NCBI GenBank assembly: GCA_015179125.1 | Contig: WHVA01000031.1 | Coordinates: 62,001 to 126,000 of the forward strand | DNA: 64,000 bases | Reading direction: 5' to 3' | From: Gautieria morchelliformis | Lineage: Eukaryota > Basidiomycota > Agaricomycetes > Gomphales > Gomphaceae | Shown: positions 19,301 through 62,111 of the stretch, piece after piece | Position numbering within the stretch: position 1 is the stretch's first letter | Layout: every line of letters begins with the position of its first letter | Notes under the pieces: generated by a model | What the model was told of the DNA's origin: nothing | Seen by the model: the letters and a program-made list of their open reading frames with translations, nothing else | The model's database searches: none | Position numbers and translations under genes: made by a program

Positions 19301-20693
19301 ATGGAATTTGCTTACAACAATGCGCCTTCCGCTACCACCGGAATTTCACCCTTTTACGCCAACAAGGGCTACCACCCGAATCTCACCATCCACCCTGAAC
19401 GCGACCTCGCCTCTGCAAGAGCCCGAGATTTCGTTGTGGAACTCGACGACCTTCACCAGCACCTCCGAGAGAACATTTCCACTGCCCAGAAGAGATACCA
19501 AACTTCTGCCGATCGGAAACATCTTCCGCAACTGGCATTTGAGATAGGCGACAAAGTATTCGTCAAAGCTGAAAACTTCTGCACCACTCGCCCCTCAAAG
19601 AAGCTCTCTGAAAAATACCTTGGCCCTTACGAGATCATCGCTAAGGCCGGCAGTCGTTCTTTCACTCTCAGACTTCCTGACAATATGCGCGCAGTACATC
19701 CAGTATTCCATGTCTCCATGCTTGAGCCCGCAGTTCTGAATACAATTCTGAATTGAGAACAACCTCCGCCTCCGCCAGTCATCATCAACGGAGAACCAGA
19801 ATATGAGATCTAGGAAATTCTTAACTCTAAGCTCGACAGACGATATGGCTGCCAACTCCAGTACCTAGTCAAGTGGGCAGGCTACGAAAACACCGACGAA
19901 GAGACCTCCTGGATTTCCGCCATGGAACTAGACCACACCTCTGACCTCATCTCTGATTTTCACAAGTCTTATCATGATAAACCTGGACCCATTTCCACGC
20001 CCTAGTCATTTCCGACCCCATTTCCGATACCCCATTGAATCTTACAGTCCTTAAGTCACACAACAATTCTGATTAATTTTCTGTTATACTATTTTCCGAC
20101 ACTTCAAGAAATTATCTACAAGTATTTTCGACACCTAGTCCTCCCTCATCATTTCCCCCTCATCCTCGTTCTCTGCTTCTGGACCTTCTTCTGCATGCCC
20201 TATCTCCACGTTCACCAACTCAGTCTCGACCCTCGTCTCTGCCCTTTGGCTCGAACCCGCTTCCACCCCATTCTCCTGCTCCTGCATTTGTGACTCCATT
20301 CGTTCCTGGAACAAGTCGTTCGGCCACCGGAGTTCCTGTTTCATCTGTTCCAAAACCGTCGACATGACGGTCATTTGATTCTGGAACAACAGCACCTGGT
20401 TATGCTGAACTTCCGCCATCTCCACCAAGACGTTCCGGATTCCACGTTGTGTTTTCCGGATGCCCCTCAACGACCCGGCGATATCGAGCAGAGGCGACAC
20501 CATAGTGAAGCGGTTGAGTACCGCTGTTTCCGAGTTCCCGGTCACCGGAAAGCCACCCGTGACCTTTTTTCCGCTCGGTCCTGGCTTTGACTTAGGGGTG
20601 TCAGGCCCCTCGGTCTTGACCTTTCGCCTTTTCTGCTCCACCCTCGCAGAACACCCATGCACGACACAACGCCTTTTCTTGTCCCGGCACCGT

Positions 20694-22040
20694 TGTATGG
20701 GAACTGCTGTTCAACCAGCACACTATATGGTCTCGGTCCTAGCTGTTCAACCAGCTCTCAAATGTCTCTTTATTGTAAATTTGTAGTCTGCATCAAAGGC
20801 CTTTAAAAACAACCAATTATCGCCCATAAAAATGTCTACTGTCCTCATAAGGCCTATTCAAACATCCCTCTAATTATCTATGAATTTTACCTATTTTTCC
20901 GAGGCTGTCTTCACTCAAACTCACTTATTTCTGTGCAGCAGAGTTGTGGATACACACGTCCCCACAACTCTGTTTCGGACTTCCAATTTCAAACTCCGAC
21001 CGGACGCTCGCGTCACTCGCGGCTGGTGCACCCGCGGTCACCCACAAATCCGGTCAGGTGGCTCCTTCAGAAGTCATTTGCTTGTACAGCCTCAATGACT
21101 CAACTGACTCATGCACACCTTGGTGAGTCACATGCTCATGACTCACCCAAGCTGTCGTGAATCACATGGGCCCAATTAATGACTCATTCCTGACAAATCA
21201 AGCCCTGATTGGTGGAAAACCTAGTGGAGTCACCAGTAGGAGTCATTTCTAGTCACTGTGGGTCATTATGAGTCAGACAGAACCCTCCCACACATTCTGA
21301 AAGCTTCTTCGTGACTCATTCCCCCATTCCATTAATAGATAGAAGATCCTACCGCTTAGTTAAGCGCCTGTACAATACGATATAAAAGGAGGCCCTTTTT
21401 GCCTGCCTTTCATCAGCCAATCTACCCATCTTCTATCCTACACGTGACCTCGTGTGACTTGCATCTTACTAAGCTGCTAATCCCAGCTAGGGTTATTCAC
21501 TTACTTTAGTGTCTAATTCCTTGTTAAGTAGTTACTTTACTGCTTAGCCACTTGGACTAATCCTCCGGGTGTAACTCTACAGAGTGAGTCTGTCAATTGA
21601 AAGTCTTGCCATTCGCACTCCAATACCCGAGATGATCTAGTCAGTCGATTTTCCTGATTAGAGACTTTCACAAGTCGCTTTGTTCACAAAACTCGTCCCT
21701 CGTTTTATTGTTGTGCGCTGGTAGATTATCAGGGCAGTCCATTTATAAACTTGCCTGCTAAGTACCTTCCTTTATATTTTGGAATACGCTTGGACCCCGA
21801 TAGTGTCCTTGAACCTACAGTCTTTTAGTTTATTGTTCAGTGCTGCTAAGAAAGGCATTGCCTTCCATCCATATTAACTTGGACTAGTTTTTACGCGGAT
21901 TGCAACCAAGGTACAAATATTAAATTATTTCCGGAGTTGTGCTGCAGCATTGTTTAATATTCTTTGAGTCTCGTAAACGACACGTTCTGATAGATTGAAG
22001 TGTTAGCAATAACACCAAAGTCTTGAAGGGTTCCAAAACA
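20694..22040 (+). mobile_element. LTR-A: solo LTR, 5-bp target duplication ACCGT
   Basis: The 1347-bp segment begins TGTATGGGAAC and ends TTCCAAAACA. ACCGT precedes it (20689-20693) and follows it (22041-22045). It is homologous along most of its length to LTR-B (25569-27068, opposite strand) and LTR-C (37689-39189). It carries a TATA box at 21381 and a cluster of bZIP sites. No internal coding region is attached, so it is a solo LTR or a very short non-autonomous element. Confidence 0.9.
21096..21387 (+). promoter_or_regulatory. Seven Gcn4/AP-1 type sites upstream of the LTR-A TATA box
   Basis: Perfect TGA(C/G)TCA 7-mers lie at 21096, 21105, 21124, 21139, 21180, 21269 and 21312. TATAAAA starts at 21381, 63 bp after the last site. 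Two overlapping 7-mers would be expected about once per 8 kb by chance, so seven in 223 bp is far from random. TGACTCA is the core site of fungal Gcn4/CPC1-type bZIP activators; binding here is inferred. Confidence 0.75.
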
Positions 22041-22571
22041 ACCGTTCGCAGGCCGTTTCCCGCGGATTTTCCGACCACACACAGTCCAAACCTTTGACCT
22101 CGCACGCGTCGCAAGGAGCCTTCTCCTCCTCGCCGTCCCTTGTTTTTCGCTTCCACGTCACGGGATTCTCCGGTCCCAGTTCCCGCAAATCCAACATGCA
22201 GGCCAACTTGTCCTTCCTGGCCTGCTGAAACTCATCCGCCCTCCGTTTTCGTTCCGCAACCACATTGAGCACAGGGGCGACTTGTTTCTGTTTCCCCTTG
22301 CCCTCTGAAGGTGGCGTGCTTTCCGCCGTGCTTTCCGATTCCGCCTCGGATTTGGATTCAATGATCCTATGGCAGTTTTTCTGTCAGCCTCGGAACTACG
22401 CACACAATGTTTCCGACTCACCCGTTGCTTTCCCGCCTTTTCTGTCGCGGCTTTGTCCTCCGCAGCCTTTTTGGCCGCGTCCCGTTTCTGCTGTTCCTCG
22501 CGGAGGCGTGACTCCTCCTCGCGGCATTCATGGTCCTTCTTCTCCTTCTCTTTCCGTTCCTGGTCCCGACG

Positions 22572-22830
22572 CTCTTTCTCCTTGCGCTCCTTCTCCTTGT
22601 GCTCCTTCTCCTTGTGCTCCTTCTCCTTGTGCTCCTTCTCCTTGTGCTCCTTCTCCTTGTGCTCCTTCTCCTTGTGCTCCTTCTCCTTGTGCTCCTTCTC
22701 CTTGTGCTCCTTCTCCTTGTGCTCCTTCTCCTTGTGCTCCTTCTCCTTGTGCTCCTTCTCCTTGTGCTCCTTCTCCTTGTGCTCCTTCTCCTTGCGCTCC
22801 TTCTCCTTGTGCTCCTTCTCCTTGCGCTCC
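22572..22830 (-). repeat. 15-bp tandem repeat encoding a five-residue Lys-Glu-His unit
   Basis: The 15-bp unit CTCCTTCTCCTTGTG recurs about 17 times with almost no variation; on the minus strand it encodes HKEKE. A few copies at both ends have GCG in place of GTG (Arg for His). The near identity of units points to recent expansion. Open frames on the plus strand here (Leu/Val-rich and Cys-Ala-Pro-Ser-Pro) are shadows. Confidence 0.9.
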
Positions 22831-23091
22831 TCTTCCAGCTGTTCCTTCTCTTTCTGGGCAACCTCCTTGGCCGCCTGCTTTTCCGCCAGCTCCTTCTGTG
22901 CAAGCAGATCGTCGAAGTACTTCTTCATCTCGGCGCTGGACATTTTCGAGAGGTCAGGTTGGGAGTTCATGGTGGCTAGGACAAAAGACGCGTTCTGCTT
23001 CCCGCCTATCTTTCGAACTCCGACGCATTTGTTCACAGGTCACATGATCCGACTTGTGGTCTCGCGGGGCTTGACCTTAGAAGGGAGATAC

Positions 23092-25204: not shown

Positions 25205-27248
25205 TCTATGTTATTTCATGACTGTGCACCTCTATCCAACCCTAACTCGGAACGGCCTCTTTCCTATTCGCTAATACCTTACGAGCATTCGATATAAGTA
25301 GTTTGCATTCACATGTATATTCCCCAGTTCAATTATCATACATCGTTCATGTTGTGCAAACTTGACCTCGCTGTGATCATCACCTTGAGCCTTCCCCTGG
25401 AGATTTCTATCTTCGACCAGAAGAGGACTTAGGCATCACTGGTGAGTTCTCATACTTCACCTTCGTTACCTTAGCCTTCGAACTATTTTCTGTGCTGTTG
25501 GCGAAGGGATTGTCACTACTTAGACAGCCCTTCCGTGACACCTTGCACGTTATTTCGTCAAGTGCCACTGTTTTGGAACCCTTCAAGACCTTGGTGTCAT
25601 TGCTAACACTTCAATCTATCAGAACGTGTTGTTTACGAGACTCAAAGAATATTAAACAATGCTGCAGCACAACTCCGGAAATAATTTAATATTTGTACCT
25701 TGGTTGCAATCCGCGTAAAAACTAGTCCAAGTTAATACGGATGGAAGGCAATGCATTTCTTAGCAGCACTGAACAATAAACTAAAAGACTGTAGGTTCAA
25801 GGACACTATCGGGGTCCAAGCGTATTCCAAAATATAAAGGAATGTACTTAGCAGGCGAGTTTATAAATGGACTGCCCTGATAATCTACCAGCGCACAGCA
25901 ATAAAACGAGAGGCAAAGAATAGAATCTAAAGCGGCTTTTACAAGTCACAGGAATTGACTTGTGAAAGATATTAACCAGGAAAATCAACTGATCAACTCT
26001 CTCGGGTATTGGAGTGCGAATGGCAAGACTATCAATTGACAGACTCACTCTGTATAATTACACCTGGAGGATTAGTCTAGGTGGCTAAGCAGAAAAGTAT
26101 CTACTTAACAAGGAATTAGACACTAAAGTAAGTGAATAACCCTAGCTGGGGTTAGCAGCTCAGTAAGATGCAAGTCACACGAGTCACGTGTAGGATAGAA
26201 GCAGTAGATTGCTAGATTGGATGATTCTCCTGGGGGTCAGAATGGCCTCCTTTTATATTGTAAATTACACAGGATTATGTAAAATGGGGAGCTTCTATCT
26301 ATTAGGCGAGTGATGTCATAAGTAAATATTTGTACAGCTAAAACACACCCTTGTAACTATAGTGGTGTGTTCGTGCAAGGAAATTAAGAATAGCTAGCCA
26401 ATCACCTTCCCTGATTCGCACTGCCCAGTATAGCCTTACACAGCCCAGCATAGCCTTGCATAGCCCTGCATAGCCCTGCACAGCCCTATGACATCAAGGG
26501 TCCTATTTCAGGGGTTGCAGCACTGAGCTTGGAGGCTCATTGTCCAATAGGATTGATTGAATATACACCCTAGTTTTGGCCCTGCATATCATTGGGCAGT
26601 CTTGCACACAGCCTTACACAGCCATGGTTGCTATGAAGCAGGTCATGTGTCTGCTGGGTTTGAACTATATTTAAGTGTACAGGCTTGTGTAAACTGCACC
26701 GGATATTCCCAATCTCACTGGCTGAGATTGAAAGAGCCAAGGTGTCGGAGTTGTGGGTGTTTGAGGACGTGCGGCTCTGAATTAGCGCGTTCGAGGATCG
26801 CTCCGGTCGGAGTTCGAAATTGAGCGCCGATGACAAAGTTATGGACTCTCATGGGTTCATAGCCTTTGTCAAACACAATAAAGCAGTTTTGAGCCAAGGA
26901 GGTCAGGACAATTGGCGAAAAAATGCAAGGAAATTCAAGGAATATTCTAAAGACAGTTCCCCATCAAATCTGCGTGTATTGGCTGATGTTAAGATGGGAA
27001 AAAGGTTTTTACAGACTTTTTAAAGCTTTTTTTCGAGATTTTTAAACTAGAAAGCTGGTTCCTACACAGCCACGGGCTATCTCGCTATGACTGTAGATAG
27101 GGCGAGCCCGGTTCGGGCAACCCTCTTACCTTGTGAACATTTATCAGTTCACCTATTCGCCGAACGGCATACTTATTCGCACAAGTTATTCGGGCATTCG
27201 CTGTGTTCACTAATACATGATATTAACGCCCAAAAACCAATCTTGACA
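25205..27248. mobile_element. LTR-D copy 1, left end missing, carrying LTR-B
   Basis: The left part (about 25205-25568) matches the middle of LTR-D (CATGACTG.GCACC..CTATCC, TATAAGTAG). The right part (27069-27248) continues from CCACGGGCTAT to the LTR end AACCAATCTTGACA. LTR-B lies between them. The right end abuts the chromodomain end of gypsy D, so it may be that element's 3' LTR or a separate insertion. Confidence 0.75.
25569..27068 (-). mobile_element. LTR-B: solo LTR, target duplication GCCAC
   Basis: 1500 bp, TGTGTAGGAACC to GGGTTCCAAAACA read on the minus strand. GCCAC stands at 25564-25568 and 27069-27073. It is the reverse-oriented sister of LTR-A and LTR-C. The core promoter word TATAAAAGG is kept (minus strand near 26260), but the Gcn4-type cluster of LTR-A and LTR-C is not seen. 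Confidence 0.92.
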
Positions 27249-35100: not shown

Positions 35101-37688
35101 GATATACTTCGGGAACATGTTTTTTAACGTTCTCAGAAAGCTCGGCAGAGCTTTCTCCCGATGTTGCTCCTCGGGGGAGGAGCGCAGGCGAGGCCAGATT
35201 GAGCTGAAACACTTCGGACCCTTCCAATCTAGACGCGTGCATGAAAGCCGGTGCATTGATTAGGGAAACGAGGGGTGCTTGCAACTTCGGAGGCGAGTTC
35301 AGAGGCGAGGTCAGAGGCGGGGGCGAAGATGCCGTAGGCGAGGTTGAAGTCGTAGCTGAAGCTGAGCGGGCTGACGTCGCCGTGGTCGCTGGAGTCGTTG
35401 TTAGGTCGATGGTCTTGAAATTAATACTGCCCAATACCCAGTCAATCGACGGATTGTAGCGGGTGAGCCAGTTGTGGCCAAGTACCATCGAGCAACTCAA
35501 GTCGAGCGAGGTTACATAGAAGGTACCCCATTGTTCTTCGCCAGTTGGAAAGCAAATGCAGAGGTCTAGAGCTTGGGTAATGGTAGTGTTAGTACTACCG
35601 TCAAATAGTTTCAAGGGTATAGGAGAGACAGGATAAACAGGCATAGAGTACTTCTGGACAAATCTGGATTCAATAAAACAATCTGAGGACCCGCAGTCAA
35701 CTAATGCAACAAAAGCGACGTTGGGAAGCGAAGGCGAGGTTAGATCTACATTAAGGGAATCTTTGGACAATGAATGAGAAGCGGCACTGAGTCTGAGCAC
35801 ACGGGTGAGGTTACCGCAATCCTCGGATCGTGTGGTTCCGAGGTTGCTACCTATTTTTTCACCTCCGTAATGGAGGCCGAAGTCCCCTCGTTAGGGGTCT
35901 TCGCTGCCCGACCTTTAGAACCGCTACTGTTGGTAGACTTGTTCTTCGGGCAGTCCTTGATGATGTGGCCTTTGGTGCCGCAAAGTAGACAAAGGCCTTG
36001 GTCGACCCGACGTTGGCGTTCCTCGGGAAGTAGTTTGCCATCCTTCCTGAGCTTGCTCGATATGTCGGGCTGGCTCTTGTTGTTCGAAGAGTTGTTGTTG
36101 GAACCCTTGCCGTTGTTGTTAGTCTTGTTGCAGTTCTTATTGTTGTTGGAACCGCTGGAAGACTGGTTGTTGTTAGTGGCATTGCTGCTGGACTGATTAG
36201 TGGCACGTGCAGGCTGGGAGCTACGACCATTGATCATGGCATCATATTCCTTATGCTCCCAGTAACGGCTGTCGCATTCCAGCGCGAAGTTCCTAAGCTC
36301 GGCGAGGCTGCAGAATCGAGGGAAGTGAAGTAAGTCGTCCTTGATTCGTTTGGCCAAGCCCTTGTAGGCAAAGTGTCGGAGGGCCGCGTCGTTCCACTGA
36401 GTCCGAGTCGAAGCTCGGGCGAAGTCGATAAAGAATCACGTGGCCTTGTGGTGCTCTTTCATAACGATCTTCTCGAGGTCAATCTTGGCTTGGGCAGCGT
36501 TGTCATAAGGGCCGAAGTTGAGCTCGAGCTCGGCCTTGAAGCTGTCCCAGTCCTCGAGCCAATCTGGCTTGGGTTGGACTTCGCCGAGGATCGCCGGCTC
36601 AAAATACTGTAGAGCTGAGCCGGACAGGTAAGAAATAGCATACTGCACCTACGAGGCCTCAGTCTTGAAAGCTGTGGGACGATCTCGGAAGTTGAGTACG
36701 CATTGAAGGAAGAAGGTGCGAAGCTTGGCCTGGTCAGTACCATCATAACTATCTGGTTCCTTGACCTTGGCTCGTGCTTCGGACTCGCGAGGTTTCGCGA
36801 GCTTGATGAACACTCGACGCATAAGCTCGTTGTCCTCGAGGTCACCGAGGTCCTCAGGTGGGAGGTTGGGGAGGTCCCGATCATTGTCGGAGCCTCCAGA
36901 GCCATCTCCTGGATCACCTGAAGGATCACCGGGGTTAGCCCTACCTTTGCCTTTGTTACTAGGCTCGGCGGGGTCTGCAAGGGGTATCCCCAGGGACGGT
37001 GGTGAGTCGTCAGGGGCTTCCGAGAAACGTCGTTGTTCTGAGATACCCCGAAGGGTGCAGGAACGAGTCATCATGGACATAGTGAAGAAAAGGGATACGT
37101 AGGGTGTAACAGTCTGAAAATACTGTTACGGTACGATCCGTCGTAAGGTTGACCAAGGTCGGGGACAAAACCTGAGGCAAGGTCCGAGGGTACGGGGCGA
37201 GGTTTGGATGGGGAAGTCGGAGAGGGACTTGGCTTCAGCTTATGTGCTGCGCTGACCCTACACACAAGTCCCAACTTCGGAGGCAAACGAATAAGAGGCG
37301 AGGTTTGGCTTAAGAGGCAAGGCTTAGAAACTAGCTAAGGATCGAAGGGATACGATAGTTGATTTTCAGACTGAGGAGTAGGAATGCATACAGGAGGGTT
37401 TATATACGGGGCGAGGGTACAAGTCAGGGACGAACATATTAGTGGAGGTCAGGGCGAGGTCAGGAGGCCAAGGTCAGGGCGATGTAATATAGGAATGATG
37501 CGTGATGGAGCGGAATCAGTAACTAAGGGGATACGGGCATGGGATCAAGGTCAGATATGAGCTCTAGCTCGGGCTCGGGCTCGGGGGCAGGATAAGAATC
37601 ATATGTACTCGGGCACGAGTATCACAAGGCTCGGGCTCGGAAGAAAGTTACACCGGTAAGTAACTGGCCAAAGGCCAGGTTCTTACAG
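32156..37688 (-). mobile_element. gypsy E: Ty3/gypsy chromovirus, nearly full coding set, 3' LTR missing
   Basis: Read on the minus strand: LTR (37688-37105), gag (37.1-35.85 kb) with a CCHC knuckle (CLLCGTKGHIIKDCP), protease (ALVDCGSSDCF), reverse transcriptase (VYLDDILIY), RNase H, integrase with an HHCC region and core (YHPEGDSQTERANQTLEQ), and integrase C-terminus with chromodomain (about 32.4-32.2 kb). The sequence ends directly after the chromodomain without a second LTR. A handful of interruptions are present. It separates the two halves of gypsy D. Confidence 0.9.
37105..37688 (-). repeat. LTR-E, 5' LTR of gypsy E
   Basis: 584 bp; on the plus strand TGTAACAGTC to GGTTCTTACA. It is dense in CGAGG and CTCGG. 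A partial second copy lies at 40412-40690 in the same orientation. LTR-C abuts its outer end. Confidence 0.85.
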
Positions 37689-39189
37689 AAGGCTGCTCAA
37701 CCAGCCCTAGTCTTTTCCTTTTTTCTTGACAACATGTAAAAACACATTTGAAGAATTAACAGTATCTGTATGCTGTTAATATAACTGGGGAAAGGCTTTT
37801 CAAACATTCCTCTAGTTATCTTATATTTTTCCTCATTTTTCCAAAGTCTCCATGGCTCAAACTACCATTTTTCTGTCATTACAGAGTTGTGGATCCTCTA
37901 GCACCCACAACTTTGTTCCAGGCGCTCTATTTCAAACTCCGCCAGGCACCTCGGCGGTGGCCGCATTTTCGCACTTATGGTCACCCAAGCACCCACAAGT
38001 CCGGCAGGATGGCCCTCTCGGTATTTCCAGCTGAGTCCCAAACAGTTGCTATATGCAGCCATAGCAACTGTGCAGCCTGTTTGGCTTCACCAAACAATGG
38101 GGATCATGGTCAGTCATGACAACTAGGCTGTACCAGGCTATGCCCAGCTGTGCTAAGCAGTGCTCTTAGTAATTATGGCTACAGAGCCCTAATTGGCTCA
38201 GAACTGCTTACTCAGCTTCTGAGTGCCAAATACATGGTTATCTGGAGATACAGCCTCAATGACTCAACCAATCCAGGCACAACTTGGTGAGTCAGGAGTA
38301 CATGACTCAGCCAAGCTGTGCTATGGCACATGACCCTTTTCAGTGAGTCATTCCTGACAAATCAAGCTCTGATTGGTAGGATGCAAGGTAGAGTCCCCTG
38401 GAAACAGCCAGTTTCTTCCGACCCTTTCTTCCATCTTCCACAAGCTTCTTCCCCCATTACATTAATAGATAGAAGGTTCTACCTGCTTACTAAGCTCTTG
38501 TACATTACAATATAAAAGGAGGCCCTTTGCCTGCCCTTTGAGCAATCAATCTACCCATCTTCTATCCTACACAGCTTGTGTGACTTGCACATCTTATCTA
38601 AGTTCCTAACCCGAACTAGAATACTACTCTTGCTTAGAGTGACTATTCTTAGTTAAGTAGTTGCTTTACTGCTTAGCCACTTAGCCTAACACGCTGGGTG
38701 AAACTCTACAGAGTGAGGTTGGCAATCAATTTTCTTGTCAATTAGCACTCCAATACCCGAGACGAGCTGTTCAGTTGATTTTCCTGTTCAGTGACTTTCA
38801 CAAGTCAAGTCAAGTTGTGCAGGAAAGCCACTTCACATTACTCTCTCGTTATTGCAGTGCATTAACGTTGGTCGACCCAATCCACTTACAAACTCTCCTG
38901 CGGAGCCTATTCCCTCTTTTATAAAAGGAATACTCTTGGACCCCGATAGTGTCCTTGAACCTACACATCTTTTAGTTTATTGTTCAGTGCAGCTAAAAAA
39001 ACGCATTGCCTTCTATCTGTAATAACTTGGACTAGTTATTACACAGATTGCAACCAAGGTACAAATATTAAATTATTTCCGGAGTTGTGCTGCTGCCTTG
39101 GATTGGTATTCTACTAGTCGTGTAACCAACACGTTCTGATAGACAGAGGCGTTAGCAATAGCACCAAAGTCTTGAAGGGTTCCAAAACA
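37689..39189 (+). mobile_element. LTR-C: third copy of the LTR-A/B family
   Basis: About 1.5 kb, from GGCTGCTCAACCAGC to TTCCAAAACA. The first few bases are lost or shared with the end of LTR-E, so no clean left target duplication exists. It is followed by ACCGTT, inside the start of gypsy D reverse transcriptase text. Confidence 0.85.
38260..38517 (+). promoter_or_regulatory. Four Gcn4/AP-1 type sites and TATA box in LTR-C
   Basis: TGA(C/G)TCA 7-mers at 38260, 38288, 38303 and 38344; TATAAAA at 38511. Three correspond in order to sites of LTR-A although the surrounding sequence has diverged, which suggests the sites were kept or arose before the copies split. Confidence 0.65.
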
Positions 39190-40411
39190 ACCGTTCTTTT
39201 TCAGCACACACAGCATGGGCACGGCCTGCTGCGCGACTGCCGGAATCCAGCACTTTGCAGTGGTGTATCATTCTATCTTAGCCGACAGTTCCTCTCGGAA
39301 ATGTTCGGGGCACTTCGGTAGTCGATACCGCATGTGTTTGTTGGGATCGACGAGGTTGATCTCATGGTTGATCTCCCGTAGTGGCGGGAGTTCTAATGGA
39401 ATTCCACTGACTAGGTCAGTGATTCGTTCCAACCATTCCTTGCGGAGGTGAGGAAGGTCATCATCCATGAGGATGATGGTGGTGGTTGGCTTAGAAGCCC
39501 TTAGGCGCTGTGTGCGTCTATTAGGTTCTGCAGCGCACGGAACCGCCTTCCTTTTTCCAGTTGCTTTCACCATTAGGTGAGAGCGCCTCTCCCTACGATT
39601 GTAGGGCGAGATTGAGGACGAGTCGTTCCACGACTCGTCCTCCTGGGTTCAATGAGCCAGGCTAGGCTTCGGTGCCCAGGTGATCCTGCTCACCCGTGGC
39701 CCCTTGTCCTCGTTCGTCGATCCATCATCGTTGAACGAGACCTTGCCCGTGGGGATTACTTCATTCCCCTTGCGGATCATCCCTGGGCTCGAGAAGTCCA
39801 GGGTTATGCCAAATCTCCTTAGGAACGGTGATCGTGTCGTAATATTCGTCGTATGTTTCACGACCAAATTTAATGGTCGTGTTCGTTCCATAGTTGATCA
39901 TGGAACGGCTGCCTATGCAGGCTAGCTGCAGCGTGATTGGCTGTTCCAGGGAGAATGTCTTCATCCCTGTAGCTCACGTGAATTCGGTAGTAGTACCCCT
40001 TTGCTGCCACTATCTAGCAGGCAGTGGGCTTTTACGCCGTTTATTTCCCAGTACCCCAACAGGGTACGGCTCTCACTGTGTGGGCGCGTTGGCCACGTCC
40101 TATGCTTGCTTCAGTGGTGATACACCAGCTCGGCCGCCTTGTCTTGTGTGATCGACGTGCGTGCTGCCATGACTTTCATGGCCGCATCGTCTTCCGGCGC
40201 GAATCTGATCACGCTGGACCTGTAGGTGGTGTCCTCCGCCTCTTCGTCCCATTCGTAATATTGGGATGGCTCGGGATCCCACTCTTCAGTGGGTGCGTCT
40301 CCGTTATCCACAGAGTCGTTGGGTTAGGGATCACCCTCCCCCTCTTCATCAATTTGATGGAGAGAATTTTGACCGAGATCCATCTCCAGATCCTCGGTCT
40401 CCTCTTCATGG
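39190..40411 (-). mobile_element. Ty3/gypsy fragment: end of gag, protease, start of reverse transcriptase
   Basis: Minus-strand text runs from an acidic gag C-terminus (EWDEEAEDTTYRSS) through protease-like sequence (INYGTNTTIKFGRETYDEYY) to the linker before reverse transcriptase (NPNKHMRYRLPK-type, LSAKIE, PMLCVLKKNG). It has the same style as gypsy D and could be its front half, separated by gypsy E and LTR-C. Broken. Confidence 0.65.
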
Positions 40412-45046: not shown

Positions 45047-46117
45047 TTAGACCAATTCTACATCTTCAAAATTCACTGAAGAATTCCTGGAAGGTGCTGG
45101 TGTCGCAGGGTACTGGTCAGAGTTGATGCGAGTATTGAAAGATGGTTTTGGAGACAAGTAGTCGATAGTAGAAGGATGAATAAAATAGGGATAACCGAGG
45201 GCGGCCTGTTCTTCGAATAGCTGCGCAAAGGAAGGCTGCCATTTAATGACTTGCTTGTTATAGTCGTTATGCTCGGTGTCGATGATAGGGTGGATAGAGG
45301 AACAGTGAGCTTTGTTAGAAGATTCTCCATTGAGAGTCGAATTGCTAGGAGATGAGTCGCGGGTTCTCTTGCGGCTCTGTCGCTCCGTATGGACTCCAAG
45401 AGTGTAAGCTTTTGGTTCAAGCCAATGCTCACATTCAGCTTCGTTGGAAATAGTCGTAGTATAACGGGTACGAGTGTTGAAACTCATATCTTCGCTGTAA
45501 CGGCGTCTGAGGGCCTCATAGAAGGGAAACTTTGAGGTGAGGTCCATGTATGCGTCATCATCGTCGTCCTTGATGCTGAGCAAGGTCTTGCCAGGTTCGA
45601 GAGGCCACTTCCAGGTGCAGTCCTCGAGATCGACGCAGTTTTCTTTTGCTTTAGCAGTCCACGCAGTGAGTTGATGGCTCGTCTGCTGCCACCTTTCAAT
45701 CCACGACTCTATTTCGCTTTTCTCTCCAGGGATTTTCAAGAAATTGAAAGCGAGGTAGTTGTCGGGTGGAATGGGAGTGCGTATCATGCTGATTTCGTGA
45801 TATTTTTCATCAGGAATGGTGAGCGGGAGTGTGTTGGAATCAACATCTCCTTTCCAGCCCGTGGCGGCGGCAAGGATGTATCGACACTTCATGCGCACGG
45901 CTTCCCAGATACTGTCTGCAATTTCAGGGCGGAGGTAGACATAAGTCTTTCCGAATAGGAAGACAGTCGTCCAGTCGTGATGTCCAGGTTTGTAGTATTC
46001 AAAGTTGTCGGTGTGCTGGAACTCGAACTGAGGCATGGACACCGCGGCTTGAACAACTTTGTTTCCATCGTGTGAGAGCTGGTAGTTGATTGATGTTACA
46101 GGTGGGAAAAGAGACAT
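45047..46117 (-). CDS. Intact 356-residue ORF of unknown family
   Basis: The frame is open from 46219 to 45047; the first in-frame ATG is at 46117 (MSLFPPVTSINYQLS). The protein is aromatic-rich in its first half (HTDNFEYYKPGHHDW, FGKTYVYLRPEIADSIW), then acidic (SIKDDDDDAYMD), with a short basic patch (ERQSRKRTRDSS) and a low-complexity end. No signal peptide, membrane segment or motif that I know is visible. It ends immediately before a polypurine tract and LTR on the same strand, so it may be the last ORF of an LTR element; upstream it abuts a Ty3/gypsy fragment in divergent orientation. That it stays open over 1.1 kb among decayed elements suggests recent activity or selection. Confidence 0.65.
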   Translation of the reverse strand: MSLFPPVTSINYQLSHDGNKVVQAAVSMPQFEFQHTDNFEYYKPGHHDWTTVFLFGKTYVYLRPEIADSIWEAVRMKCRYILAAATGWKGDVDSNTLPLTIPDEKYHEISMIRTPIPPDNYLAFNFLKIPGEKSEIESWIERWQQTSHQLTAWTAKAKENCVDLEDCTWKWPLEPGKTLLSIKDDDDDAYMDLTSKFPFYEALRRRYSEDMSFNTRTRYTTTISNEAECEHWLEPKAYTLGVHTERQSRKRTRDSSPSNSTLNGESSNKAHCSSIHPIIDTEHNDYNKQVIKWQPSFAQLFEEQAALGYPYFIHPSTIDYLSPKPSFNTRINSDQYPATPAPSRNSSVNFEDVELV

Positions 46118-46209
46118 GGAGAGAGATGGATAAGATTTCGATTGAGCGCTGCTAGATAAGTTGAGAGACTGTTTTTTTGGGTTTTTCAAGAGTTCATTCT
46201 GATTTTTAT

Positions 46210-46600
46210 GTGTTTTCTTGAGCTAGATTATTATATTCGTACAGAAAAAATTAGTCCTATCACGTACCGGCTGAGGATGCCCGCATCATACGGACTACTT
46301 CCTGTGCTAAACGTGGCACACCTTGAGAAATACAATGACTCACCGGTAGAATTTGGAGATCGTCCCAGGAAGCATCTTGATAGGGCTGATTTCTCCGAAG
46401 TACCTGAGTATGAAGTTGAGAAAATCATCAAGTCTCGCTGGAGAGCTGCGAGAAACCGAAGACGTACCGAAGAATTATTGACCAAATTCGTTGGATATGG
46501 ACCTCAATTCGATGAATGGTTAACACGAAAACATTTGAAAAACGCACCTGACGTGGTGCGAGAATGGGACGAAAGTCAAGGAAGGAAACGAAGACTCTAG
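46210..46600 (+). mobile_element. Ty3/gypsy fragment: integrase C-terminus and chromodomain
   Basis: Plus-strand text LPVLNVAHLEKYNDSPVEF is the integrase C-terminal junction, and EYEVEKIIKSRW...FVGYGPQFDEW is a chromodomain. It differs from gypsy 1, D, E and H, so it is another lineage. Everything upstream is missing at the head of the 356-residue ORF. Confidence 0.8.
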
Positions 46601-46639: not shown

Positions 46640-47863
46640 TGTCTTGAAAAACAGTAGCAAACACAGAGGTGGAGTGGGAAATGGGAGAACAGAGCATCTG
46701 AGTATGGGAAATAAACACGTCATGACATGATGAACCATCAAGCCAGGTAATGGATGTTGATCGTGTTTGATGGCGTGCCTGCTGGCAAATGATGTGAGCA
46801 GCGAATGGTTGTTCGGCGAATGCAACGAAGGGTGAATTGAATGATCATAGAAGAGGCATGGCCCAGAGGAAGGGCGAAGCCGTGTGAACATAGAGGAGGA
46901 CTGGGGGAAGGGATAATAGGGGTAACTGGGTACAGGAAATAAATGAGTCCCGTCGTCCGATTAGAGGAACATCTGGCGGGGTTGAGCCAGGGGGTGATAG
47001 GACCCATGATAAACCATCGAGCTGTTATGTATCGAGATTTCCGCTAAGTCGGAACTGGAAAGGACAGCGGCTTCAACTTATAGGTTGCACCCCCAATGAA
47101 CTATCGTCCTAAGTATTTTGAAATTGAGTCAGAAGGTGGAAAGTACTGAACCAAAGGCTTGGTCGGAACTTGAGTCGGAACTGAGGCGGAAGGCGGAAGG
47201 CGGAGAGACTGAGATCTTGCTAGACTTGCTGTGCTAAGAACAGGAGATGGAGCGAAGGAAATCAAGTATCGAAGGCGATTATCTGATTGCAGAATAAGAG
47301 ACATATATGACAGGCTTTTATACAAAGAGCTGAGACAACAGGTAATGATATGGTACTAAGCAAATTCCGGGGGAAGCGGAAGTCGAGTAGACAATGCGTG
47401 GGAACTAACTATTGGGAACAATGGGACTACAAGGGGGGTTCAGGGTAAGGTAGAACAATGGCAAAAAACAAGGGGTCGGGAAAACATATCTGACAACGAA
47501 CTACAAGGGTGACCGGATATGTGGTCTTGATGAACGGTGAGGTGGGTCCGTTGGGTCCGAGTAATAGAGTCGAAAGAACAAGGGAAATGTACAAGGGGCG
47601 GAATGTCGGAAATAACAGAGGGGCGGAAAGTGTTGCAGAAATATCGGAGGGGCGGAAGGTGTGGCGGAACTGAGGGTCGAAAGTCGGAAATGAACGGTCG
47701 TAACACGAGCCGGGGAGAGGGCGTTGATTGGGTATGGATAGCGCTGCTACGTGTGAATGACATGGAAGTGAATAAACGTTCGGCGAATTCAGCGAGGAGC
47801 GAACAGGGAGAACATAAAAGTGGAGTGTTGAGGTTACTGGGTATAAGAAATAGACAGGTCATG
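46640..47863 (-). mobile_element. Two reversed LTR-D fragments hosting a solo LTR-G
   Basis: 46640-46715 is the tip of a full-length type LTR-D (ends ACGTCATGACA). From 46717 a second reversed LTR-D begins (TGATGAACCATC...) and ends at 47863 with CAGGTCATGACA. LTR-G (47023-47705) is inserted in the second. The right edge abuts protease text of a gypsy fragment, as expected for insertion there. Confidence 0.75.
47023..47705 (-). mobile_element. Solo LTR-G, target duplication CGAGC
   Basis: 683 bp, plus-strand ends TGTTATGTATCG and CGGTCGTAACA, reverse of the gypsy 1 LTR. CGAGC is present at 47018-47022 and 47706-47710. No internal sequence remains, so the element was lost by LTR-LTR recombination. 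Confidence 0.92.
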
Positions 47864-56155: not shown

Positions 56156-56879
56156 TGTTGAAAGTATTAAAGAAAACAATATTAACATATTAACTACAAA
56201 CACAACCCCATATCATGACCAATACTCCGATAACCCCTCTCTCGGGATATATGCACTACGGCACTAGTACCCGAGACCGCCGGATCATCATATGCCCACC
56301 CAAATTGACCCGATCACACCCCCCGACTCCCCTGATGCCACAGGGACATGTATCACGTGTTACCACGTCTTACAACACCCAAAACACTATCCAAGAACAC
56401 CGAGCCCATCCCGAATCACGCACCTTCCATCAGTCACGTGACCCAATCAAGGGGCGCGACACGTCGAGCCAACCCTGCCTATACCCAGACTATGCCCCCT
56501 ATCCTTCACCAAACTTCTGTCCCCGCTTCCTACTTTACACTCCATCTCCAAGCCCAACCTCGTCTCCCCTATCGTTACATGTGCGCCGCTCACCCCATTC
56601 CATCATCCCTTTAGTATCACACCACCAATCCCTTGACCGCCAAGCGCCACTAGTAACTAATAAATACGTGACCCCATGTACAAGAACAGAACAGTGAAAT
56701 AACACCTCGTTTCACCTCTCATTCTACAGTAGGATTTCTAGTCAACACTAAAGTCATAAGACACGCATACTTACTGTGCGCGCAGATATTCCTGCCTACT
56801 CTAAAATCTCACTTGATTTATCTCACAACCAGGAGATTAAATCAATTATTCTCAATATCATTCCTAGTATAAAACCACA
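56156..56879 (+). repeat. 5' LTR of copia 1
   Basis: TGTTGAAAGTATT to AGTATAAAACCACA. Two CACGTG words lie in the middle. The primer-binding region starts right after at 56880. Confidence 0.93.
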
Positions 56880-59800
56880 GATTAAGAGTCTCAGACTCTA
56901 CTCACGATGGCACAGGCACCTACGACCACCCAATCACCACCAAAACACGACGTACACAAATTCCGAGACATAAAACCAAAACTCAACAAGAACAACTGGA
57001 TTTCATGGAAGAGGGAACTACTGGCAACGGCGAGGGACAGAGGGATATACAAAACCATCATCGGTACGACCCACGCATCACAGTTATCGCCGGAATCGAC
57101 ATGATCGGCAACACCCCACTCACACAACTACAAGACGAATGGGATGACAGGAACAACGTTGCGTATAGTCAAATCCTTCTATGTATATCACCAGAATTAC
57201 AGACGGCCATCGACGAAACGGAATTATGTGCCGAGGCATGGAACATACTGATTAGGAAATTTGAATCAACCAATCCGAGAAAAATCAGTATTATTAGGAC
57301 GGGGTACGAGAACTATCACATGACAGAGGGACAATCGGTCTCAGAATATATTACTACTATGAAAGAATATAGGAATCAACTGGCAAAAATGGGCGACCCC
57401 ATTGCCGACTCCACACACTGTGCCACTCTACTCAGGAACGTACCTGAATCATGGAGACCCATCGCACAAACAATACGTATGATCACTAGAGACCCAGACG
57501 AAATTGAAGAGAAACTGGAAGCCCACAAAGCAGACCTAGGAGCCGTCGAGGTATCAACACAAGCGGCCACGGCATTTGTGGGACAGACTCGACAACCCAG
57601 ACGTTTCAACAACTCACCAACTCGACCGACATTCAACAGCTACAACACACAACAGAATCGACCCCCGATCCAACAATCAGGAGGACACAACTTCTCCTGC
57701 AACAACTGCGGTAAACCAAACCACTCAGCATCAAGATGTCACGCACCAGGAGGAGGGCTAGCGACACATGAACCATGGAGGAAATACAACAACGCACACG
57801 GGGGGAACATGATGGGAGGAGGGAACTCACAGGGAGGTGGATACAACGGACCCAACAGATTCGAAAATAACAGACCGACACCACCTCAGCAACACCAACC
57901 GAACACCAACAACGATTCAGCACAATTCACCAACGTACCGAAGAAAGACATCGTCATGATGGCGCACGAGGAGACGAAATCAAACCCCGAGGCCAGTGAT
58001 ATAATCCTATCGACAGATTCCACGGCATTATCAGCCATAAAGGACAATGTACACATCTGGCTAGTCGATTCCAGGGCCACCAGTCACCTATGCGGCAATA
58101 TTGATTTATTCGACGAAATGCATCCCACACCACCGATTTCCATCGAAACAGCCAGCGGAGACTCCTTCAGAGCCGATCAGAGGGGAACCATCAGAATAAC
58201 ACTACAAAGCGACGCTCACCTACACCTACCACCTCTAGCCCTCACACTGATCGACGTCATATTCGTCCCAAGACTCAACGCCAACTTACTCTCCGTAGCC
58301 AAAATGACCAACGCAAACATAGACATCATGTTCAGCAAGGACGACATGTCCCTACTGATGGGAGACGAAATCTTAGCCCAAGGAACGAGAATCGACAACT
58401 TATACGCATACATGGCTCAACCGTCAAAGGAACCTGAACCAGAGAAGGCTCTCTACTCTGATAAACCGAATCAATTGACACTATGGCATCACAGACTAGC
58501 ACACACTGCCACATCAACAATTCAGAAGATGTGGAAACAGCAGACAGGCGTCGGTTTACCGAAGATCAGTAGTGAGGAGGAGTTAAACATATGCACCAAC
58601 TGCCCTTTCGGAAAAAAGACGCGCTCACCATTCAAAAACATCGAGGACACACCTGAGAAGATTGGAGACATCGTATAATCGACCTATGCGGACCATTCGA
58701 AACATCAGTTGGGGGATACAAATACTTCATCACATGGATCGATCACGCCACTCGATACACACACATCGACTTTCTGAAGAACAAGGAATGCACAACCGTC
58801 ACGAAATCATTCAAAGAATATATCGCATGGTTAAGGACACAAAAGAAAGCGGAAGTGAGGAGGATAAGGACGGACAACGGGGGAGAATACACCGGGAAGG
58901 AATTCGAAAGTACATGCAGTGAGCTTGGAATTGTTCACGAAACTACAACCCCTCACACACCAGAACACAATGGTATCACCGGGAGATACAACAGGACTCT
59001 ACAAGAAGGAGCCCTCACCCTACAAAACGACGCAGAACTCAGCAAAAGATTCTGGGTATCCAGCATACACACCGTCAACTTCGTCAAAAACCGCATACTA
59101 CACACGAAAATCAACAAGTCACCTTACGAGGCCTTTTGGAAAACCAGACCCAGACTTGATTGGCTGCGAACATACGGATCCAGGTGTTGGGCACTAGTCC
59201 CAAAAGCCACAAGGAAGAAGGGAGACTACAAAGCGATCGAAGGAATTTTTGTAGGATACTTTGACAACTCAAAGTCTTACAAGGTGTGGATACCACGAAC
59301 TCAGACACTGATGAAGTCTAGAGATGTAGTATTCGACGAACTAAAACACGTCGAACATACAACTCTACACGTGGAAGAGGAGGACGACGACCCCTACCTA
59401 TGGGTACTCGACGGAAAGTTACCATCATTTTCCCCACCGTCACAATCCAGAAATGATCCAGCTGGAGACGACGACAACAACAACATCCCACCACTCATCG
59501 ATCTAAGTCTGGAAGAAGAGGAGGAGATTGAAGCGGAAGAGGTCGAGGGAATCGTGACGAAACAACGAGAGGAGGAGGAAAGAATGGAAACAGAAAACAA
59601 CGAAAGGGAAGAATTAACAGAACAGTCAGAAGGGGATACAGGAAGAGAAGGAAGCGAGGAAACAGCACCAAAGGACTTCTTGAAGGGACCATGGATGAAT
59701 CCGACAAACACTGATTACGGGAAGGGAAAACGACACACAGCATTACTCACAGAGGTAGCAGCAATGGCACGAGGAAGAACGACACTTGAAGAAACGGAGA

Positions 59801-61387
59801 CAGCACTTGTAGTATTAGCAGAGGATGAACCGGTGAGTTACAGAGAGGCGATGAAATCGAGGGACGCAGAGAAATGGAGGAAGGCATGTCAGGACGAATA
59901 CGATCTGCTAACAGGATACAAGACATGGGAACTAACCGAGAGACCAGAGGAAACGAACGTTGTAGGGAGCAGATGGACATTCAGAGTGAAGAGGGATAAT
60001 CTAGGAGAAGTGGATAAGTTCAAGGCGAAATTCATTGCACAGGGATACTCACAAGTCCCAGGAGTCGATTTCCAAGAAACATATTCCCCCACCATTCGAC
60101 TCACCTCAATTCGACTTATCCTCGCCCTCGCAACCAAATACAACCTAGAATTACGACACATTGACGTGAAGGGAGCTTACCTGAACGGAAAGCTCGATGA
60201 TACCGTATACATGCGACAACCGGAGGGATTTATCAAACAGGGAGAAGAGAATTTGGTCTGCAAACTGAATAAAGGAATATATGGACTCAAACAATCGGGG
60301 AGAGTATGGCACGGGACACTGAAAGAACAGATGGAGAAAATGGGATTCAAAGCAGGAGAGGCAGATAGGACGATATTCCTCAGATTTGGGGAAGGAGACA
60401 ACATCGAGATTGCAGGATGGTATGTGGACGATGGACTCCTTGCATCGAGTTCATTGACTGCAATGGAGAGAATGATCAGAGACATCAGGGGGAGCTTTGA
60501 CATACAGGACTTGGGAGACCCGACACGATTACTCGGTATCCAGATTGTTAGGAATCGAGAACACGGCACCATACACATCTCCCAACCAGCATTCATTAAC
60601 ACCATCGCCAAACGATTCGAAATAACATCCGGACGTACGGTAAATTCCCCAATGGACCCAAACACCGAACTACGAGTCTCCACCTCCACATCAGAAATCA
60701 TTGACTACGCTTACGCATTGATAATCGGAAGCTTGAACTACTGTGCAGTGGCAACTCGACCAGACATAACCTACGCGGTCAACAGATGTGCACAATTCTC
60801 ATCCAAGCCTAACATCACTCACTGGGAAGCAGCCAAGAGAATCCTACGATACCTATTGAACACCAAAGAGTACGGTATAACATACCTCAGAGAAGGGGAC
60901 GGGGCCATGGGATTCGCACATAACTTGGCAGGATATACGGACGCAGATTTCGCAGGGGACAAAGATGACAGGAGATCGACTACCGGATGGTTATTCACAT
61001 ACAACGGGGCACCTATATGTTGGGCATCAAAGAAACAAATCAGTTTCAGCCGATCGACGATGGAATCAGAGGTAGTGGCAGGATCATTCGCCTCAGCAGA
61101 AGGGATATGGCTCATCAGGTTAGGGAGGGACTTCAGACACGAATTTACCCCCATCCCTATCTTCACCGACAACCAATCCACCATCGCGTTCTCGAACGAC
61201 AGCGTCAACAACAGCAGGACGAAACACATCGATATCCATTACCATTACACCAAAGAACAAATCACGGCTGGAAATATCAATCTTCGATATATCAAATCGC
61301 TTGAGAATCCAGCTGACGTCCTCACCAAGCCGCTGCCAGCTCGCAAGCATCTCCACATCCTCGGAATGCGTCGAGCTTGAGGGGGAG

Positions 61388-62111
61388 TGTTGAAAGTATT
61401 AAAGAAAACAATATTAACATATTAACTACAAACACAACCCCATATCACGACCAATACTCCGATAACCCCTCTCTCGGGATATATGCACTACGGCACTAGT
61501 ACCCGAGACCGCCGGATCATCATATGCCCACCCAAATTGACCCGATCACACCCCCCGACTCCCCCGATGCCACAGGGACACGTATCACGTGTTACCACGA
61601 CTTACAACATCCAAAACACTATCCAAGAACACCGAGCCCATCCCGAATCACGCACCTTCCATCAGTCACGTGACCCAATCAAGGGATGTGACACGTCGAG
61701 CCGACCCTGCCTATACCCAGACTATGCCCCCTATCCTTCACCAAACTTCTGTCCCCGCATCCTACTTTACACTCCATCTCCAAGCCCAACCTCGTCTCCC
61801 CTATCGTTACATGTGCGCCGCTCACCCCATTCCATCATCCCTTTAGTATCACACCACCAATCCCTTGACCGCCAAGCGCCACTAGTAACTAATAAATATG
61901 TGACCCCATGTACAAGAACAGAACAGTGAAATAACACCTCGTTTCACCTCTCATTCTACAGTAGGATTTCTAGTCGACACTAAAGTCATAAGACACGCAT
62001 ACTTACTGTGCGCGCAGATATTCCTGCCTACTCTAAAATCTCACTTGATTTATCTCACAACCAGGAGATTAAATCAATTATTCTCAATATCATTCCTAGT
62101 ATAAAACCACA
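61388..62111 (+). repeat. 3' LTR of copia 1
   Basis: Same length and ends as the 5' LTR; follows GGGGGAG directly after the RNase H stop region. Confidence 0.93.

What the first reader, a model, noticed from the sequence alone, without database searches (positions are those of the whole stretch)
21096..21387. Seven perfect TGA(C/G)TCA sites in 223 bp upstream of the TATA box of a solo LTR; four in a sister copy
LTR-A carries the Gcn4/AP-1 core 7-mer at 21096, 21105, 21124, 21139, 21180, 21269 and 21312, then TATAAAA at 21381. LTR-C has four (38260, 38288, 38303, 38344) before TATAAAA at 38511. LTR-B keeps the TATA word but not the sites. Established: TGACTCA is the binding site of Gcn4/CPC1 bZIP activators (amino-acid starvation, stress). 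Inference: these LTRs are stress-inducible, portable promoters, and the solo LTRs could pass this control to flanking DNA.
Basis: partly seen in the sequence, partly recalled or inferred. Interest (0 to 1): 0.75.

Follow-up and report, generated by a model that had tools for sequence, protein, structure and literature searches.

The report
bZIP-site arrays in fungal LTR promoters
Families of jumping genes in this fungus carry, just upstream of their start signal, dense clusters of the DNA word that yeast's amino-acid-starvation regulator Gcn4 binds, which suggests (not yet tested) that they are switched on by a host stress or nutrient regulator.

Summary
LTR-A (20694-22040, +, target duplication ACCGT on both sides, so a solo LTR) has seven perfect TGA(C/G)TCA in 223 bp against 0.245 expected in the whole LTR; none of 2,000 shuffles reached seven. 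LTR-C has four. LTR-B, a complete solo LTR at 25569-27068 (-), has none and a different U3. The sites belong to the families: of 27 full A copies 23 carry eight and 4 carry seven; of 28 full C copies 23 carry four. In A, site columns vary less than other U3 windows (P 0.0002); in C they do not. Genome-wide, a three-site pattern has 1,589 matches against 0 for the reversed pattern. A further array repeat, X2, unrelated outside the motif, is LTR-like: 13 sites, 7 of 12 spacings exactly 10 bp, then a TATA-like word and a common 3' end in CA. A Gcn4-like bZIP exon exists (52% identity over 33 residues, E 0.04). Best reading: enhancers read by a host bZIP, most likely Gcn4/Cpc1-type. The inducing condition is untested; in this window I saw no host gene placed to be driven. 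The kind is known (Ty1, heat-shock elements in LTRs); recurrence in an unrelated LTR-like repeat is the interesting part.

The parts
20694..22040 (+). LTR-A, solo LTR, 1347 bp, TGTATGGG...CCAAAACA
   Evidence: sharp boundaries shared by family copies and TSD
20689..20693 (.). left target-site duplication ACCGT of LTR-A
22041..22045 (.). right target-site duplication ACCGT of LTR-A
21096..21318 (+). array of seven perfect TGASTCA: 21096, 21105, 21124, 21139, 21180, 21269, 21312
21259..21265 (+). TGGGTCA, probably the decayed eighth family site, which 24 of 27 family copies keep as TGAGTCA
   Evidence: matched by its 10-bp distance to the next site
21381..21387 (+). TATAAAA of LTR-A
25569..27068 (-). 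LTR-B, complete solo LTR of 1500 bp, TSD GCCAC (25564-25568 and 27069-27073, + strand letters); R-U5 like LTR-A (86%) but a different U3 without TGASTCA
37688..39189 (+). LTR-C, lacks the first 30 bp of its 1532-bp family
38260..38350 (+). four perfect TGASTCA: 38260, 38288, 38303, 38344
38511..38517 (+). TATAAAA of LTR-C
22046..22345 (-). stretch whose minus-strand frame stays open across the empty site of LTR-A into the ORF at 20135-20710 (-); cysteine-rich, zinc-cluster-like spacing at the junction
   Evidence: only 300 bp on each side were examined

Best explanation
The TGASTCA clusters are the upstream activating (enhancer) part of the U3 promoter of Ty3/gypsy LTR retrotransposons. Each perfect site can bind one dimer of a host bZIP protein, most likely the Gcn4/Cpc1-type activator. 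Several dimers side by side upstream of the TATA box would recruit co-activators and start the element's genomic RNA about 30 bp downstream. Expression would then follow the host's amino-acid-control or stress state. Shown: sites, family-wide presence, position, enrichment, a second LTR-like repeat with the same arrangement and no similarity beyond the motif, and a Gcn4-like bZIP exon. Inferred: binding, activation and the inducing condition.
For: Enrichment with 0 of 2000 shuffles reaching it in A and in C. Family-wide: 212 of 216 expected site positions intact in 27 A copies and 108 of 112 in 28 C copies. In A, site columns carry 4 differences against a mean of 30.4 in random CpG-free U3 windows (P 0.0002; local windows 25.0, P 0.002). 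In the ungapped A/C block (78% identical), 4 of 5 A sites are sites in C, one through a C/G swap at the centre that keeps the motif. The arrays sit upstream of a TATA word in A and C. X2: 13 sites in 229 bp, 7 of 12 spacings exactly 10 bp, TATA-like GATAAATA 18 bp beyond the last site, common 3' end in ...GGCA in 16 of 16 other scored copies that contain the array. Genome-wide triple clusters 1,589 against 0 for the reversed control. A bZIP exon at C594:47626-47724 is 52% identical to yeast Gcn4 over 33 residues, and a codon pattern for N-T-x-A-A-x-x-[S-like]-R hits exactly in register at 47641.
Against: No binding, transcription or starvation data. In C the site columns are not more conserved than other U3 windows (P 0.35 and 0.51). 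The A/C comparison is weak by itself: 37% of comparable 7-base windows in that block keep their outer six bases too, so 4 of 5 is not significant alone, and only 4 of A's 7 sites have a counterpart in C. LTR-B, also numerous, has no sites, so they are not needed for success. The A result uses the copies most similar to the window's, and singleton changes too are depleted in the sites, which selection on the source copy alone would not explain. In yeast, Ty1 mRNA is reported to be nearly unchanged in gcn4 mutants despite five potential Gcn4 motifs (PMC6814769, passage). The Gcn4-like exon scored only E 0.04; L070, which is not Gcn4-like at the contacts, scored almost the same (E 0.06); the exon's letters were not read, and the pattern's S codon also allows T, C, R, W or a stop.
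Confidence: 0.6

Rival explanations
1. The arrays are U3 enhancers, but the protein is another bZIP (AP-1/Yap1-like, ATF-like or other) and the signal is oxidative stress, development or mating rather than amino-acid starvation.
For: Three bZIP_2 loci pass the cut-off. TGASTCA is also the AP-1 word (recalled). Nothing here fixes the inducing condition. L070 scores almost as well as the C594 exon against yeast Gcn4, and its best solved relatives are ATF-4 and ATF-2.
Against: L070 has NTAASARFR in the basic region, i.e. S and F where Gcn4 has A and S, so it is not Gcn4-like at the contacts (contact residues recalled). The C594 exon fits Gcn4 in register.
Confidence: 0.22
2. The arrays arose as micro- or minisatellites by slippage, or from decay of methylated CpG (CGACTCG to TGACTCA), and have no function.
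For: X2 has a 10-bp period and variants such as TGACTCG and CGACTCA. CpG columns vary strongly between copies (2.575 differences per column against 0.355 in other non-CpG columns of A).
Against: In LTR-A spacings are irregular and tandem-repeat scores are only 33 and 30, over 21 and 36 bp. Dinucleotide shuffles, which keep TG and CA excess, do not give it. Sites are nearly fixed within families, so they were in the source copy and not made by later decay.
Confidence: 0.11
3. The sites recruit a bZIP for another purpose, for example to steer integration (as S. pombe Tf1 integrase uses Atf1) or to bind a repressor.
For: Tf1 integrase interacts with Atf1, which can direct integration to Atf1-site promoters (PMC7175516, passage).
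Against: Insertion flanks are not rich in TGASTCA: 4 sites in 33,000 bp within 300 bp of the ends of 55 A and C copies, 6.28 expected at the genome rate; 33 in 156,920 bp of wider flanks of 58 loci, 29.9 expected, 13 of the 33 being one X2 array. A repressor role is not tested.
Confidence: 0.07

Closest known systems
Saccharomyces Ty1 LTR and Gcn4 (Morillon et al. 2002, seen only as cited in PMC6814769 and PMC9283973)
   Same: A fungal LTR element with several potential Gcn4 motifs near the LTR and a TATA-containing U3 (passages).
   Different: Ty1 is copia-type (PMC7175516, passage); its motifs are given as TGAATG, not perfect TGACTCA; mRNA is reported nearly unchanged in gcn4 mutants. Here 7-8 perfect sites lie in one U3.
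Cryptococcus TCN12 and TCN3 LTRs with putative heat-shock elements (PMC12810828)
   Same: Stress-factor sites in basidiomycete LTRs, and stress-linked mobility (passages).
   Different: One or two putative HSEs for Hsf1; here arrays of bZIP sites, with no mobility data.
S. pombe Tf2 and Sre1, Tf1 and Atf1 (PMC7175516)
   Same: Fungal Ty3/gypsy elements tied to a host stress or environment factor; A-family pol has a Tf2-1-like SH3 domain (passages).
   Different: Sre1 responds to low oxygen; Atf1 acts in integration targeting, for which no sign was found here.
ONSEN-type plant LTRs with heat-shock elements (recalled)
   Same: Clustered sites for one host stress activator in U3 (recalled).
   Different: Other kingdom, other factor (recalled).

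Membership tests
LTR of a Ty3/gypsy retrotransposon | TG...CA ends with 4-6 bp target-site duplication | tested here: met
   TGTATGGG...CCAAAACA; 5-bp TSD in 12 of 27 full A copies and 19 of 28 full C copies; window LTR-A and LTR-B both have it
LTR of a Ty3/gypsy retrotransposon | Polypurine tract directly before the 3' LTR, gypsy pol upstream | tested here: met
   4 of 27 A copies have GAAGGGGG(G)ATACG on the left; one of them (C493) has an integrase C-terminal SH3_Tf2-1 domain, a chromo match below cut-off, then an extra ORF; pol was looked for in that copy only
LTR of a Ty3/gypsy retrotransposon | 5' LTR followed by a primer binding site | not tested
Gcn4/Cpc1-responsive promoter | Several TGACTCA-type sites upstream of TATA, above chance | tested here: met
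Gcn4/Cpc1-responsive promoter | Host encodes a Gcn4-type bZIP with matching DNA-contact residues | tested here: inconclusive
   52% identity over 33 residues at E 0.04; codon pattern in register; letters not read
Gcn4/Cpc1-responsive promoter | Binding and induction by amino-acid starvation, lost without the factor | not testable with these tools
   needs RNA-seq, ChIP or a reporter
LTR (X2 repeat) | Common 3' end in CA, TSD, TATA in front of the transcribed part | tested here: inconclusive
   3' end at query 507-512 in 16 of 16 other scored copies that contain the array...GGCA, TATA-like word; an uninterrupted relative of the target in the window predicts TSD GTGGA, but the 5' end was not seen

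The most novel reading that the evidence does not exclude
Unrelated LTR-retrotransposon families in one fungal genome have independently converged on dense, CpG-poor arrays of the same bZIP site, so that one host nutrient or stress regulator controls a large share of the genome's mobile DNA. The CpG-free word TGACTCA may be favoured because it stays readable under, and does not decay from, CpG methylation.
Probability: 0.35. Interest if true: 0.72.

Novelty: new member of a known kind. Interest (0 to 1): 0.52.

Why it matters
Links between host stress factors and fungal retrotransposon activity are known best from yeasts. PMC12810828 says that heat-shock-induced TE activation through host machinery remains undescribed in fungi (passage). 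Here are natural contrasts in one genome: LTRs with related R-U5 but 8, 4 or 0 sites, and an LTR-like repeat with 13 that is unrelated outside the motif. The idea that a bZIP array makes an LTR stress-responsive can be tested directly by comparing A, B, C and X2 transcripts in the same RNA sample. If true, amino-acid limitation would be a general trigger of transposition in this fungus, and the solo LTRs would form a large reservoir of ready bZIP-responsive promoters.

Tried and rejected
Integration targeting by bZIP sites: rejected as the main reading because flanks are not enriched. One search's first count (34 sites in 187,475 bp) held overlapping loci twice and two loci that are no flanks; one search repeats it on 58 separate loci. 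Tandem slippage as the source in LTR-A: not supported, though likely for X2's 10-bp period. L070 as the Gcn4 orthologue: rejected on its basic region. Conservation of sites within C: tested, not significant. LTR-B as a decayed A copy: rejected, its U3 is a different sequence. X1 (15 sites in 537 bp at C1:386579-387115): could not be shown to be an LTR. Literature: searches returned no paper. Searches returned 32, 1, 6 and 8 papers, of which titles and abstract openings were seen (20 of the 32) and four papers were opened for passages only. None of what I saw describes Gcn4-type arrays in basidiomycete LTRs; the library holds open-licence papers only. Morillon et al. 2002 is not held. Extra ORF: no Pfam match in two copies, no PDB match for the window copy.

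Rows dropped: of 30 A places fetched (the window copy included), 27 were counted; L031, L033 and L034 were left out because their alignment starts 29-49 bases into the LTR. Of 29 C loci besides the window's own, 28 were counted; L061 was left out for the same kind of reason (starts at base 30, beside an inverted partial copy). The window's LTR-C is truncated and was left out. Copies are the best 30 places per search by similarity to the window copy, out of 40 scored and 1,475 (A) or 1,819 (C) first-look candidates, so they are not a random sample of either family.

Full report
OBSERVATION. In LTR-A seven fall in 223 bp; dinucleotide shuffles of the LTR give 0.245 on average and none of 2,000 reached seven. 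LTR-C has four against 0.273, also 0 of 2,000; LTR-B has none. The motif is the commonest strand-collapsed 7-mer of LTR-A, and no 7-mer of 500 shuffles exceeded six.

WHAT THE REPEATS ARE. The window is C349:62001-126000 of an unnamed 122-Mb, 1,113-contig genome. It is fungal, probably an agaricomycete: that is inference from DUF6606, gypsy and copia elements and gene style; no call names the organism. Copies elsewhere define LTR-A as 20694-22040, starting TGTATGGG and ending CCAAAACA, with TSD ACCGT. LTR-B is 25569-27068 on the minus strand with TSD GCCAC as read on the plus strand. LTR-C is 37688-39189 and lacks the first 30 bp of its 1,532-bp family, which begins TGTAGGGGAACGGCTG. Twelve of 27 full A copies and 19 of 28 full C copies have perfect 5-bp TSDs. 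Four of the 15 A copies without a TSD have GAAGGGGG(G)ATACG at the left end, a polypurine tract, so they are 3' LTRs. Upstream of one of these (C493) lie an integrase C-terminus (SH3_Tf2-1 E 2e-11; a chromo match below its cut-off) and an unassigned ORF. The family is therefore Ty3/gypsy. No complete element could be fetched, so the primer site was not seen.

FAMILY-WIDE TEST. Of 27 A copies, 23 have eight sites and 4, the window's included, have seven; of 28 C copies, 23 have four, 4 three and 1 five. Position by position, 212 of 216 A sites and 108 of 112 C sites are intact. In A the site columns show 4 differences in all, against a mean of 30.4 for random CpG-free windows of the U3 (P 0.0002) and 25.0 for local windows (P 0.002). 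In C the result is null, P 0.35 and 0.51. Against my reading: in A singletons are depleted as well as shared changes, although singletons should mostly be changes after insertion, and the copies are the most similar ones. The A value may thus partly reflect sampling or mutation bias.

BETWEEN FAMILIES. In the ungapped A/C block (132 bp, 78% identical), four of five A sites are sites in C; one of the four has changed from TGACTCA to TGAGTCA, which keeps the motif. Site columns are 86% identical and others 75%; 37% of 65 windows that do not overlap sites keep their outer six bases, so four of five is suggestive only. A's last two sites have no counterpart in C, which makes four of seven in all. 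LTR-B shares the 3' part with A (86%) but from 48 bp upstream of TATA its U3 is different apart from short matches, with a run of GGGCTRTGC-like words instead. So this lineage exchanges or rebuilds its U3 while keeping TATA, R and U5. B is numerous as well: 28 of 42 listed matches, the window copy included, span exactly 1-1500 and three more nearly so.

OTHER REPEATS. A pattern of three sites with gaps of 1-30 bp has 1,589 matches in the genome, against 0 for the reversed pattern. Matches overlap within arrays and some places match on both strands, so arrays are fewer than matches. In the listed part (the first places only), two kinds appear besides A and C words. X2 was found by chance in the flank of L017: 13 sites in 229 bp, 7 of 12 spacings exactly 10 bp, then GATAAATA 18 bp beyond the last site. 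Its similarity to A, B and C is limited to weak matches centred on the motif (best E 0.002). Sixteen of 16 other scored copies that contain it end at query position 507-512 (9 at 507, 6 at 508, 1 at 512), after ...TTCTGGCA; the other 23 scored matches were to a neighbouring repeat. The window holds an uninterrupted relative of the target, which predicts TSD GTGGA. X2 thus looks like an LTR, but its 5' end was not seen. A three-site word at 10-bp spacing has 242 matches, control 0. X1 has 15 sites in 537 bp at C1:386579-387115, and its characteristic 19-mer has 205 matches, control 0; whether X1 is an LTR is unknown. Single TGASTCA words number 23,240 against 11,610 for the reversed word, but the window's dinucleotide shuffles already predict about this density (11.96 per 64 kb), so single sites are not in clear excess; the clusters are.

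THE READER PROTEIN. Three bZIP_2 loci pass the Pfam cut-off. L070 has NTAASARFR in its basic region and is not Gcn4-like at the base contacts (contacts recalled). The C594 exon is 52% identical to yeast Gcn4 over 33 residues, E 0.04; L070 comes next at E 0.06. A codon pattern for N-T-x-A-A-x-x-(S, T, C, R, W or stop)-R has six matches in the genome, one of them at C594:47641, exactly in register; control 1. This is fair but not conclusive evidence for a Gcn4/Cpc1 orthologue.

MECHANISM. Shown: sites, position, families, enrichment. Inferred: bZIP dimers on the array recruit the transcription machinery to the TATA, and element RNA rises when the factor is active (amino-acid shortage, if it is Gcn4/Cpc1). 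Integration targeting is disfavoured: 4 sites in 33,000 bp of 300-bp flanks, 6.28 expected, and 33 in 156,920 bp of wider flanks, 29.9 expected. The arrays are CpG-poor (A array observed/expected 0.15 against 0.78 in the upstream U3; C array 0, but C's upstream U3 is low too, 0.28), while CpG columns are the fast-changing ones. A CpG-free activator site would stay usable in methylated repeats; this is a speculation to test, and no methylation was measured.

FLANKING GENES. Joining 300 bp on each side of LTR-A, one TSD kept, gives a minus-strand frame that stays open through the empty site, with a cysteine-rich, zinc-cluster-like stretch. LTR-A therefore probably interrupts a gene, in antisense. 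Behind LTR-C lies repeated DNA. I saw nothing here placed to be driven as a host gene.

KNOWN AND NEW. Ty1 has potential Gcn4 motifs near its LTR (PMC6814769, passages). Cryptococcus LTRs have putative heat-shock elements (PMC12810828, passages). Tf2 answers to Sre1 (PMC7175516, passages). The principle is therefore known. New here, as far as the searches named in Tried and rejected show, are the number of perfect sites and the recurrence in an LTR-like repeat of the same genome that is unrelated outside the motif.

CHANGES AFTER CHECKING. Confidence in the best explanation went from 0.62 to 0.60 because the A/C comparison proved weak alone and L070 scores nearly as well as C594 against Gcn4; two rivals rose by 0.01 each.

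Noticed in passing
G000 C1:386579-387115 and other places (205 matches of a 19-mer genome-wide): X1 repeat: 15 perfect TGASTCA in 537 bp; the 19-mer often recurs 103 bp apart, a higher-order unit; its nature is unknown.
   Followed up: partly
L017:3866-4372 (-): X2 LTR-like unit with TGACTCAYTC repeats, 7 of 12 spacings exactly 10 bp, upstream of GATAAATA; common 3' end in CA.
   Followed up: partly
26404-26484 (- strand, LTR-B U3): Run of GGGCTRTGCA-like words in LTR-B's U3, another possible activator array; LTR-C has similar words near 38125-38163 (sequence).
   Followed up: no
37656-37686: The first 30 bp of LTR-C's family are missing here; the adjoining stretch is a palindrome-like GTAAGTAACTGGCC AAA GGCCAGGTTCTTAC.
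   Followed up: no
22041-22047 and 39190-39196: LTR-A and LTR-C are both followed by the same 7 bases ACCGTTC, while the other full copies listed have other flanks.
   Followed up: no
45050-46222 (-) and L010:41-1459: Related ORFs next to the pol end of this gypsy lineage (before the 3' LTR in L010), without Pfam match; no PDB match for the window copy; an extra third gene.
   Followed up: partly
LTR-A family alignment: CpG columns vary about seven times more than other non-site, non-CpG columns, as expected of methylated, deaminating repeats.
   Followed up: partly
G000 C1, for example 68986/69553 and 122656/123223: Eight TGASTCA pairs exactly 567 bp apart among the first 100 places listed: perhaps yet another repeat family with two sites.
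   Followed up: no
56156-61687: Copia-type element with long open frames (RVT_2, rve) between direct repeats that are 98% identical over 300 bp: probably young.
   Followed up: no
22452-22931: 15-bp tandem array coding KEKEH repeats in the minus-strand ORF 22158-23039 beside LTR-A.
   Followed up: no
L019 and L021: Two A copies on different contigs share both flanks near the LTR, so they are a segmental duplicate or two haplotypes in the assembly.
   Followed up: no
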